From Clostridium sp. BJN0001 (GTDB taxonomy: Bacteria; Bacillota; Clostridia; Clostridiales; Clostridiaceae), in NCBI RefSeq assembly GCF_022869825.1, contig NZ_CP094971.1, positions 1,985,501 to 2,049,500 of the forward strand: a stretch of 64,000 nucleotides of DNA, given 5' to 3'. Of the stretch, positions 52,594 to 55,227 are shown one piece after another. Below the pieces are notes generated by a model. It was not told the DNA's origin, did no database searches, and saw only the letters and a list, made by a program, of their open reading frames with translations. Each line of letters starts with the position of its first letter. Within the stretch, counting starts at the first letter, position 1. The translations under genes were made by a program, and so were the position numbers.

Positions 52594-52802
52594 AACCTTT
52601 CTCCTACTAAAATAAGTATACTGTATAATATGAAGAATATTGTGTATGTTGTGTTACTTTTTATGATATAATTTCTTATTGAGATAAATATTTAGACCAG
52701 CTAATAATAGTCAAGTAAATTTCTAAAAAATATTAATTCTAAAAAAGTGCATAGCAAACAAACCGTTCAAAAACACGAACGATTACAAAAACAGGAAATA
52801 AA

Positions 52803-54104
52803 TTAAGCTACCTTATGTAGATGCTTATTTTCTAAAAACATTTGTTTATGTAGTTTAGGATCTCTTTGTTCAAAGGGCGTTTGATCTCGAAGAACAGCAA
52901 AAATATAATTCAATATTTTGTGCATTATAGCAACCAAAGCAACTTTAGCTTTTTTGCCTTTTAGATTAACTTGATAGTATTCCAATAAAACTTTGTTTAT
53001 AGGGATTCCATTACGATTACGCCTAATTGAGGCAAGAGCTACAGCATACAATGCTCTTCGACCGATTCGAGTTCCACGTTTGGATATTTTGCATTGGTCA
53101 CCTTGAAATTTACCAGACTGATTAATAGAACTGTCTATACCAAAGAAAGCTACAAGATGTTTAGGCTTAATAAAGCCGTTAATATCACCTATTTCAGCTA
53201 TTAAAGTAATAGCTGTTAAGCGTCCTATTCCTGGAATTGAATTTATTAATTCAATATTATTTCTGATAGATTCAGGAAATTCAGATGATTCAATCAGTGT
53301 GTTGATTTCATTTAATAAGTTATCTATTTGTTCTTCAAAAGCTTTTATTAATGCCAAAGAACTAGATATTTTAACAGACAAACCGCTTAGCGGAACGCCA
53401 ATAGTCGCAGCTTCTTTTGCAACAGCAATTAACTTTGAATAGATGTTTTCAGACCAAGTTAAACCTTTTTTAGATTTTTCAACAAGAATTTTTAGTATAT
53501 CTTCTTTTGAGGCATCTATTATTGATTTTGGAGTTGGATAGTTACTTAAAATTTCAAGTGATGTATTAGATGTGGAATCTGAAAATACAGTATTGTAATT
53601 TGGAAAGATAACTCTCAAATCAGCAGATAACTTCTTTTTATAAATAGAACATGTATCTGTAAGCTTATAGTATTCTCGCACGATATTTTTCAAAAGAAAA
53701 ATATCAAGATCATTTGGCGTAGATAACTTAATATTTTGAAATTTTCCTATGTTCGCAATAGATAAAGCATCTTTTTTATCATTTTTCACTTTTCTTATAT
53801 CCACATTTTTGTTACACTTAGTAACGAGTGGATTGATAACAAATGTGTTATCAAAATTATTATTAAGATAGTGGAAAAGAGATAAGTGGTACACACCAGT
53901 GGACTCCATGAAAATGCCAGTTTTCATGTTAAACTCTTCTTCCACTTTTTTTATTTCATTAACTAAGTAATTGAAGCCGCTTACGTCATGCTTTATCTTA
54001 AATGATTTTTTATAAACATCACCATTAGGTGCGAGTATTGCAGCATATGAAAAATCAGCTGAAACATCAATTCCAACTACAGGACTATTAAAAAATTTAG
54101 ACAT
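52803..54104 (-). CDS. IS110-family transposase (DEDD recombinase)
   Basis: A 433-residue transposase. The N-terminal RuvC-like DEDD domain has VGIDVS (Asp13), MESTGVYH (Glu67) and RKVKNDKKDALSIA (Asp109, Asp112). A coiled-coil region follows, then the Transposase_20 domain with the helix-hairpin-helix INSIPGIGRLTAITLIAEIGD and FFGIDSSINQSGKFQG, whose Ser is the likely nucleophile by analogy with IS621. The C-terminal GTRIGRRALYAVALASIRRN is typical. ATG 54104 follows AAAGGAGATATAT; an in-frame upstream extension is excluded. IS110 recombinases act with an RNA guide from the element's own non-coding end. Confidence 0.95.
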   Translation of the reverse strand: MSKFFNSPVVGIDVSADFSYAAILAPNGDVYKKSFKIKHDVSGFNYLVNEIKKVEEEFNMKTGIFMESTGVYHLSLFHYLNNNFDNTFVINPLVTKCNKNVDIRKVKNDKKDALSIANIGKFQNIKLSTPNDLDIFLLKNIVREYYKLTDTCSIYKKKLSADLRVIFPNYNTVFSDSTSNTSLEILSNYPTPKSIIDASKEDILKILVEKSKKGLTWSENIYSKLIAVAKEAATIGVPLSGLSVKISSSLALIKAFEEQIDNLLNEINTLIESSEFPESIRNNIELINSIPGIGRLTAITLIAEIGDINGFIKPKHLVAFFGIDSSINQSGKFQGDQCKISKRGTRIGRRALYAVALASIRRNRNGIPINKVLLEYYQVNLKGKKAKVALVAIMHKILNYIFAVLRDQTPFEQRDPKLHKQMFLENKHLHKVA

Positions 54105-54130
54105 TGTATATATCTCCTTTAAATTAAATT

Positions 54131-54311
54131 TGAGATAGAATAGAACTTCCAATCTATCAGATAGCTTATAACCTTGTTTGTGACACGGGTAATTCCCAAA
54201 GGGAAACCCAACCAGCTAAACATAGAATTCTACCTGATGGAATGATACGCTAACTTACGGGTATAGGTTCTAAATAAACCTCCCAGGAGGGATACATCTA
54301 TCTTCTATTCA
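54131..54311 (-). ncRNA. Candidate IS110 bridge RNA
   Basis: Upstream of the transposase, about 180 nt begins just after a TATAAT (54317-54322) and can fold extensively. A short hairpin CCTCC/GGAGG is followed by loop 1, closed by AACCT-type pairs (ACCT with AGGT, ATAC with GTAT). Loop 2 is closed by TAGCT/AGCTA and holds GGGT..CCC TTT GGG..ACCC. The 5' part (GATAGA) can pair with the 3' part (TCTATC). Two internal loops in series, the length and the position match bridge RNAs of the IS110 group. Ends are approximate. Confidence 0.65.
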
Positions 54312-54346
54312 GGAGTATTATACTAAACTATATTAAATTTGGTTAG

Positions 54347-54522
54347 ATTCCTTTTGGAATTTAAATAAAAAACTATTTTAAGTATGAAATGCATATTCCC
54401 TATCGGGGCGTAGGCAGAGTAATAAATAAGAATATTAAGAATAATTAGAAATGTAATGTTCGTTAGTAGACTAAATGGTTTTCTATCAAATGTTACAACT
54501 AGATTATACAAGGAGGGTTACA
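54347..54522. other. Non-coding gap between the IS and the DUF975 gene
   Basis: No gene is seen. It starts with a perfect palindrome ATTCCTTTTGGAAT (54347-54360) at the proposed insertion edge. It also contains a GC-richer patch near 54392-54418 (CCCTATCGGGGCGTAGG) and an inverted repeat TTAGT/ACTAA (54463-54474). The DUF975 ribosome site AAGGAGGG ends it. No good promoter is visible. Confidence 0.5.
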
Positions 54523-55227
54523 ATGATTAGCAGATATGAATTAAAAAAACATGCTAAAAATAGACTTAAAAAAAGATGGATTCTGGCAGTTTCAGGTCTT
54601 CTAATATATGAACTTATCATTGCGATAGGAACATATCTTCCAGAAATTATAGGATATACAGAAGAAGGAATAATGTATGATATATTATCTGTTACAGGAA
54701 TACTTTTAACTATTATTACTATTGCTGGCTATAATAAATTTTCTATTAATTTTGCCTCATCAGATGATAAACCATATTTATGTGATATATTTTTAGCATT
54801 CAAATTTCCGTTAAAAACTATAATTACATATTTATTGATTGGAATTATTTCATGTATACCAGCATTACCAGCTCTTATTGCAGGACTTATTCTATATTAT
54901 AAATTTAATATGTCAAATATAATATTAATAGTATTTTTAGTTATTTTTGTACTTTTGGCACTTATATGTTCAATACCTTTTTCTCAAAGTCTTTATATAC
55001 TTGTAAATGACCCTTCACAAAGAATACTTAAATATATAACTCTAAGTTATTCAATGATGAAAGGTCATATTATAGAATATATAGTTCTTACATTAAGTTT
55101 TATTCCATGGTATATTTTTGTATTTATTACTGCTGGACTAGGTGTTTTCTATGTAATGCCTTATCAGCAGACAACTCTTGCTTCATTCTATTTAAGAATT
55201 AAAAATTCATATATAGATAGTTTATAA
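54523..55227 (+). CDS. DUF975 membrane protein
   Basis: A 234-residue integral membrane protein with about five to six hydrophobic segments. The N-terminal MISRYELKKHAKNRLKKRW and the end QTTLASFYLRIK with LSYSMMKGH in between are typical of DUF975, a family of unknown function common in Firmicutes. ATG 54523 follows AAGGAGGG by 5 bases; an upstream in-frame ATG at 54475 lacks a site. Its stop overlaps the convergent topB stop by 6 bases. The IS110 element directly upstream may have separated it from its promoter. Confidence 0.85.
   Translation: MISRYELKKHAKNRLKKRWILAVSGLLIYELIIAIGTYLPEIIGYTEEGIMYDILSVTGILLTIITIAGYNKFSINFASSDDKPYLCDIFLAFKFPLKTIITYLLIGIISCIPALPALIAGLILYYKFNMSNIILIVFLVIFVLLALICSIPFSQSLYILVNDPSQRILKYITLSYSMMKGHIIEYIVLTLSFIPWYIFVFITAGLGVFYVMPYQQTTLASFYLRIKNSYIDSL

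What the first reader, a model, noticed from the sequence alone, without database searches (positions are those of the whole stretch)
54131..54311. Structured RNA in the IS110 non-coding end: candidate bridge RNA
Seen: about 180 nt between a TATAAT and the transposase gene folds into a 5' hairpin followed by two loop-bearing domains in series, with pairing between the ends. Known: IS110-family recombinases such as IS621 use a bridge RNA of about 177 nt from the same place, with one loop for the target and one for the donor. Inference: this is such an RNA in a Clostridium-type host, from a 433-residue transposase longer than the IS621 enzyme.
Basis: partly seen in the sequence, partly recalled or inferred. 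Interest (0 to 1): 0.7.

Follow-up and report, generated by a model that had tools for sequence, protein, structure and literature searches.

The report
Bridge RNA aimed at ribosome-binding sites
The mobile element carries a guide RNA of a recently discovered kind (bridge RNA) that joins the element's own ends to a chosen target, and here the chosen target is mostly the short signal in front of genes where ribosomes attach, so the element slips in just upstream of genes and leaves that signal intact.

Summary
The finding holds. Window 54311-54132 (minus strand) is a bridge RNA of an IS110-group insertion sequence (core to core 52694-54512) with three copies in its genome. A covariance model from 17 sequences finds it in 34 of 225 genomes of the order (15 of the 34 supplied training sequences). 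In 72 of 75 aligned copies a recombinase starts 14-31 nt downstream. Both loops carry guides that follow the neighbouring DNA: left target guide (0 of 20,000 permutations), right target guide (57 of 62 copies at position +3), right donor guide (ACAAG/CTTGT, ACGAG/CTCGT, AUGAG/CTCAT). The helices covary. The three host copies, and 49 of 67 copies tested, sit antisense just upstream of a start codon, with the target's Shine-Dalgarno half left on the gene. Unlike IS621, the RNA starts about 200 nt inside the left end behind its own conserved -10 box, besides a promoter rebuilt at the circle junction. Some genomes keep only the outermost 43-204 nt of that end before a gene: unexplained. New member of a known kind; expression and activity untested.

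The parts
52694..54512 (-). IS110-group element, core to core (one of three copies in the genome)
   Evidence: one other copy identical, one with a single base different
52803..54104 (-). recombinase gene, 433 aa, DEDD_Tnp_IS110 and Transposase_20 domains
   Evidence: D13, E67, D109, D112, S330 invariant in 16 aligned sequences (own plus 15) and aligned with IS621
54132..54311 (-). bridge RNA
54285..54294 (-). left target guide UAUCCCUCCU (anti-Shine-Dalgarno)
   Evidence: matches left flank ACCCTCCT; permutation test
54250..54253 (-). right target guide UUAG, pairs with CTAA
54211..54219 (-). left donor guide UUAGCUGGU
   Evidence: same letters as left donor TTAGCTGGT at the right end
54173..54177 (-). 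right donor guide ACAAG, pairs with core plus right donor CTTGT
   Evidence: follows the right donor
54317..54322 (-). internal -10 box TATAAT, 5 nt before the RNA
   Evidence: TATAAT 4-10 nt before the RNA in 69 of 75 copies, TAAAAT in 2, neither in 4
54503..54508 (-). -10 half of the circle-junction promoter
   Evidence: TTGA[CT][TA]-17 nt-TAT[AG]AT in 58 of 59 junctions
52709..52714 (-). -35 half (TTGACT) of the circle-junction promoter
54511..54512 (-). core CT, left side
52694..52695 (-). core CT, right side
54511..54516 (+). Shine-Dalgarno AGGAGG of the neighbouring gene (ATG at 54523), left on the gene side of the insertion
54446..54511 (-). conserved outermost left-end tip (first letter is the core T), function unknown

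Best explanation
It is the bridge RNA of an IS110-group element. Inferred cycle: the element excises as a circle; the joined ends form a promoter of good consensus (TTGACT-17-TATAAT); the RNA is made from it, or from its own -10 box, and binds the recombinase. The second loop pairs with the element's joined ends (TTAGCTGGT-CT-TGT), the first with the target (ACCCTC-CT-AA). Strand exchange at CT inserts the element. Because the left target guide is an anti-Shine-Dalgarno sequence, insertion mostly falls antisense just upstream of genes and leaves the Shine-Dalgarno half attached to the start codon. Shown here by sequence: RNA conservation and structure, the four guide matches (the left donor guide stops before the core), covariation of three guides plus one changed state of the fourth, insertion sites, junction promoter sequence. 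Inferred: transcription, binding, recombination.
For: Three copies with different flanks, all CCTC-CT then right donor, and left donor then CT. Model R1: 34 of 225 genomes (a lower bound: strict filters, 12 candidates scored per genome), 75 of 75 loci taken from hits, recombinase start 14-31 nt 3' in 72 of 75. Left target guide: 6.33 of 9 matches to its own flank versus 4.61 +/- 0.21 permuted, 0 of 20,000 (27 distinct guides, 67 copies); ten guides without CCTCC match their own flanks in 5-8 of 9. Right target guide: +3 correct in 57 of 62 copies, 0 of 20,000. Right donor guide: all five letters complementary in 29 of 38 distinct RNAs with a readable right donor (counted by hand), in three states. 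Helices covary except the one drawn across the donor loop. Start codon plus open frame beside 49 of 67 sites; shuffled flanks mean 2.2, maximum 6.
Against: No transcript, binding or activity data. The left donor guide does not match the core (UG opposite CT), although the core is part of every pairing in IS621. Some copies do not fit: left target guide 2-3 of 9 in L062, L134 and L196, 4 in L185 and L131; right donor guide imperfect in 9 of 38 (L063, L134, L143, L212, L213, L216 one letter off; L066, L211, L217 decayed or unreadable); L187 and L197 one left-donor mismatch, L134, L143, L212, L213 and L216 also differ. Many copies come from the same genomes and are not independent. In 67 genomes of the genus the neighbouring gene had no full-length DNA match outside its own genome, so no empty site could be examined.
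Confidence: 0.94

Rival explanations
1. The stretch is a structured 5' leader that regulates recombinase translation, not a guide RNA.
For: It ends shortly before the recombinase gene and its Shine-Dalgarno (recombinase start 14-31 nt downstream in 72 of 75).
Against: It would not explain guide letters that follow each element's own flanks and ends. Dual use is possible.
Confidence: 0.04
2. The bridge RNA is real, but the strength of the Shine-Dalgarno pattern is partly a by-product: insertions elsewhere are lost by selection and mainly harmless ones are seen.
For: AGGAGG at the insertion precedes a start codon and open frame in 35 of 40 copies (counted by hand from the listing) against 8 of 23 AGGAGG in the window (one genome region against copies from many genomes), so some selection is likely.
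Against: The guide itself spells the anti-Shine-Dalgarno sequence, and guides with other letters match other flanks.
Confidence: 0.25
3. A chance fold in AT-rich DNA beside a transposase.
For: Single-sequence z is only -1.65.
Confidence: 0.01

Closest known systems
IS621 bridge RNA (IS110 group; PMC11208160, sections 5 and 7 read in full, other parts as passages)
   Same: Left-end location, about 180 nt, target loop then donor loop, LTG/RTG/LDG/RDG logic, CT core, four-letter RTG, promoter rebuilt at the joined ends, DEDD recombinase.
   Different: IS621 RNA starts at the junction promoter; here it starts about 200 nt further in with its own -10 box. No 5' hairpin in the consensus fold (IS621 hairpin recalled). 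LDG does not pair with the core. Recombinase about 100 aa longer than the 328-residue IS621 chain. Target mostly a Shine-Dalgarno; the paper names REP elements as an example of IS110 targets.
ISEc21 seekRNA (IS110 type; PMC11187229, passages read)
   Same: Upstream non-coding region needed for circle formation and movement; promoter formed at joined ends.
   Different: No comparison of RNA or target letters was made here.
IS900 of Mycobacterium avium paratuberculosis (IS110 family; PMC8141618, passages read)
   Same: Preferential insertion motif, insertions rarely in coding sequence. Recalled, not seen in any call: its target lies between ribosome-binding site and start codon, in the same orientation.
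   Different: Not compared in sequence here. If the recollection is right, Shine-Dalgarno targeting itself is not new to the family.

Membership tests
IS110-group bridge RNA | Encoded in the left non-coding end of an element with a DEDD/Tnp recombinase | tested here: met
IS110-group bridge RNA | Target loop: LTG matches left target, RTG complements right target, both with the core | tested here: met
   poor fits L062, L134, L196
IS110-group bridge RNA | Donor loop: RDG complements right donor with the core | tested here: met
   29 of 38 distinct RNAs fully complementary over five letters (hand count), three states; exceptions L063, L066, L134, L143, L211-L213, L216, L217
IS110-group bridge RNA | Donor loop: LDG matches left donor with the core | tested here: inconclusive
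   matches TTAGCTGGT and changes together once (UAACUGGU, L133/L135), but not across the core
IS110-group bridge RNA | Conserved, covarying secondary structure | tested here: met
IS110-group bridge RNA | RNA transcribed, bound by recombinase, needed for recombination | not testable with these tools
   no expression or biochemical data
IS621-type layout | RNA begins at the junction promoter | tested here: not met
   junction promoter sequence in 58 of 59, but the conserved RNA starts about 200 nt downstream
IS621-type layout | 5' stem-loop before the target loop (recalled) | tested here: not met
   consensus fold
IS1111 group | Bridge RNA in the right end | tested here: not met
   RNA lies in the left end; right non-coding end is 107 nt
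IS1111 group | Subterminal inverted repeats of 7-17 bp | not tested
   no search made for them

The most novel reading that the evidence does not exclude
A 'good neighbour' design: the guide mimics the ribosomal anti-Shine-Dalgarno so the element tends to land between promoter and ribosome-binding site, and its conserved left-end tip then serves as the new leader or promoter of the gene. Hosts that lose the element keep the tip as a domesticated leader. Support: of 38 loci examined, 22 carry only a left-end tip, 20 of these 22 beside a start codon with an open frame; homology ends at or before 99 nt in 19 of 22, whereas in complete elements compared with their next relatives it runs through the left end in 34 of 36. 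Against: no sigma-A promoter was recognised by eye in the tip, and relics of ordinary deletion are not excluded.
Probability: 0.3. Interest if true: 0.72.

Novelty: new member of a known kind. Interest (0 to 1): 0.52.

Why it matters
It is a natural set of closely related RNA-guided recombinases whose target loops differ while most of the rest of the RNA stayed similar, so targeting rules can be read from genomes. Aiming at ribosome-binding sites should give the element many similar landing places at low cost to the host (inference), and the internal -10 box raises the question of whether integrated copies can still make guide RNA.

Tried and rejected
An early guess put the right target guide in the first hairpin loop (AUUUAG matches CTAAAT). 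Relatives showed that hairpin to be a covarying stem with unrelated loops, so the match is taken as chance; the real guide is on the 3' side of the internal loop.

A structure for the outer left end was tried by RNAalifold on 33 sequences; it gave an empty structure for real and shuffled columns alike, so it says nothing. An empty site was sought through the neighbouring gene in 67 genomes of the genus; outside the own genome only short partial matches came back. The AlphaFold model is poor (mean pLDDT 65); Foldseek ranks ISCro4 and IS621 first (E down to 3.4e-10) but with TM-scores of 0.30-0.42, so it adds little. No phage record matched. Plasmids gave partial matches only: query 52600-54500, 3 records covering 5-28%; query 54131-54515, 1 record covering 24%.

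In the guide tests 8 of 75 copies dropped out for the left guide (L005, L075, L199, L073, L135, L133, L066, L218) and 13 of 75 for the right guide (no usable right flank in 12; L211 has no CT there). I shifted the left guide by one letter in eight copies with an extra U before GGG (L062, L134, L143, L212-L216). L131, with an inserted A, stayed out of register and counts against. The first right-guide pattern failed and was replaced by alignment columns. L006 was too short for the start-codon test. Five tip loci at contig ends (L084-L087, L091) and L058 (no tip) were not passed.

Searches for IS900 or IS110 with ribosome-binding-site terms found nothing.

Full report
What is there. The window holds an IS110-group element on the minus strand. 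Its genome (2.69 Mb, one contig) has three copies, two identical and one with a single base change, in three different places. In the direction of the recombinase gene each copy reads: host flank ...CCTC, core CT, right donor TGTATAAT, left end of about 400 nt, recombinase (433 aa), right end of 107 nt ending TTAGCTGGT, core CT, host flank.

The RNA. Seventeen distinct RNAs, from the own genome and relatives (several unnamed), align over the whole stretch; variation is strongest in the first loop domain. A covariance model from them matched 34 of 225 genomes of the order (strict filters, 12 candidates scored per genome, so a lower bound; by handle and contig length 15 of the 34 genomes supplied training sequences, 19 did not). 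I then took 75 loci from the hits and all 75 matched. In 72 of 75 a recombinase frame begins 14-31 nt after the RNA (identity 27-100%, start extrapolated from the alignment). Counted on 45 distinct rows, 29 of 52 pairs have a change on both sides, against 5-13 when partners are slid. Consensus: a 7-bp helix joining the two ends; a target domain GAUG/UAUC enclosing an internal loop and a capped stem whose letters change freely but stay paired; a donor domain with a long stem, an internal loop and a capped stem. The only one of nine predicted helices without a double change runs across the donor loop, where pairing with DNA rather than with itself is expected.

The guides. Left target guide: mean 6.33 of 9 letters equal to the element's own left flank, 4.61 +/- 0.21 when flank sets are dealt out anew among the 27 guides, never reached in 20,000 trials. 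Ten guides lack CCTCC; for example GGUUCUUACCU with flank ACTTCTTACCT and GUAUCACCUCU with ATTTCACCTCT. Right target guide: the letter after the core is predicted correctly in 57 of 62 copies (A 27, T 24, C 5, G 1; misses A-T 4, C-T 1), again 0 of 20,000. Right donor guide: ACAAG with CTTGT, ACGAG with CTCGT, AUGAG with CTCAT; 29 of 38 distinct RNAs with a readable right donor are complementary over all five letters (hand count, which lists 45 distinct RNAs). Left donor guide: UUAGCUGGU with TTAGCTGGT, and UAACUGGU with TAACTGGT in L133 and L135. It does not continue through the core, unlike IS621, where the core is part of all four pairings (PMC11208160, section 7). Poor fits are listed under evidence against.

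The target. The left flank is mostly an antisense Shine-Dalgarno. All three host copies sit before an ATG (12, 13 and 15 nt from the core). Of 67 copies with enough flank, 49 have a start codon 9-18 nt from the core with an open frame, 39 of them ATG; shuffled flanks give 2.2 on average and 6 at most; shifted positions give 7-16%. Of 40 copies with AGGAGG at the site, 35 have such a start (counted by hand from the listing); of 23 AGGAGG in the window, 8. The half of the target that holds the Shine-Dalgarno stays with the gene, so the gene keeps its ribosome-binding site but is separated from what lay upstream. Selection against harmful insertions probably adds to the pattern.

Promoters. The joined ends of the circle would carry TTGA[CT][TA]-17 nt-TAT[AG]AT in 58 of 59 copies, as described for IS621 and ISEc21 (PMC11208160 section 5; PMC11187229 passages). 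Separately, TATAAT lies 4-10 nt before the RNA in 69 of 75 copies, TAAAAT in 2, neither in 4. By the usual spacing that would start transcription near the first structured letter. No good -35 was seen there by eye. In IS621 the RNA begins at the junction promoter (section 5). Whether the inner box is used is unknown.

The recombinase. Pfam DEDD_Tnp_IS110 and Transposase_20; relatives with solved structures are IS621 and ISCro4. D13, E67, D109, D112 and S330 are invariant in 16 aligned sequences and line up with IS621. About 80 extra residues lie between the two matched regions (ranges). Two of the 120 listed relatives are already named 'IS110 family RNA-guided transposase', so family membership is not news.

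The outer tip. By eye in the alignment, the outermost 66 nt of the left end are better conserved than the next 130. Thirty-eight loci with a tip were examined (sorted by hand): 6 end at a contig end, 10 keep other element parts or a right end, and 22 have only the tip. These 22 start at the core (rows; extrapolated by 4 nt for L057), are 71-95% identical to the nearest complete element, and homology stops at or before 99 nt in 19 of 22 (141, 167 and 204 in L057, L258, L260). None has a right-end match above 15 of 22 letters within 700 nt, the level of shuffled sequence where that was run. Caveats: L090 has one weak further match (70% over about 80 nt), L082 has a 34% recombinase fragment elsewhere in the locus, L094 and L098 are near duplicates, and the searches that found the loci scored 3-4 candidates per genome. 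In complete elements compared with their next relatives the same search runs through the left end in 34 of 36. I have no proven explanation; the leader/promoter reading is given as the novel case.

Literature. Searches of the held open library for IS110 or bridge RNA with Shine-Dalgarno, ribosome binding site, IS900 and Clostridium terms listed no paper whose title or abstract start joins bridge RNA and Shine-Dalgarno targeting; the four papers concern NusG/RfaH proteins. Passages of PMC7823733 were also read and do not describe the IS900 target. The library lacks most subscription papers, and I recall older reports of IS900 inserting beside ribosome-binding sites, so I do not claim the target choice is new.

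Noticed in passing
L081, L083, L088, L089, L092, L093, L096, L259, L261, L268, L271, L273, L274 and nine others: Solo left-end tips (homology over 43-204 nt), 20 of 22 directly upstream of a start codon with an open frame, without bridge RNA or right end.
   Followed up: partly
L079, L095, L255: Left-end tip with a right-end match beginning 133-230 nt further on and no recombinase match, like non-autonomous or internally deleted copies.
   Followed up: partly
L062, L134, L082 left flanks: Three different elements sit at the same unusual flank TTATTACAGGAATACT (last letter the core T); it fits the guides of L062 and L134 poorly (2 of 9), and L082 has no guide left. Perhaps the end of another mobile element.
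   Followed up: no
L074, L192, L193: Three insertions with the same right flank and nearly the same left flank, apparently in a repeated sequence; their right target guide UGAG fits CTCA.
   Followed up: no
window 54487-54498 and the same place in relatives: Two three-letter words in the left-end tip change together as direct repeats (TTG...TTG in some elements, TCA...TCA in others), which pairing within one strand does not explain (seen by eye).
   Followed up: no
G000:C1 330419, 373415, 450704, 518196: Four copies of a second, distant IS110-type protein (441 aa open frame, 24-25% identical) in the same genome.
   Followed up: no
L080: A copy with an internal deletion that removes most of the bridge RNA and the start of the recombinase.
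   Followed up: no
recombinase, window 52803-54104: After IS621 and ISCro4, Foldseek lists Nop5/Nop56-type box C/D RNA proteins for the low-confidence model.
   Followed up: no
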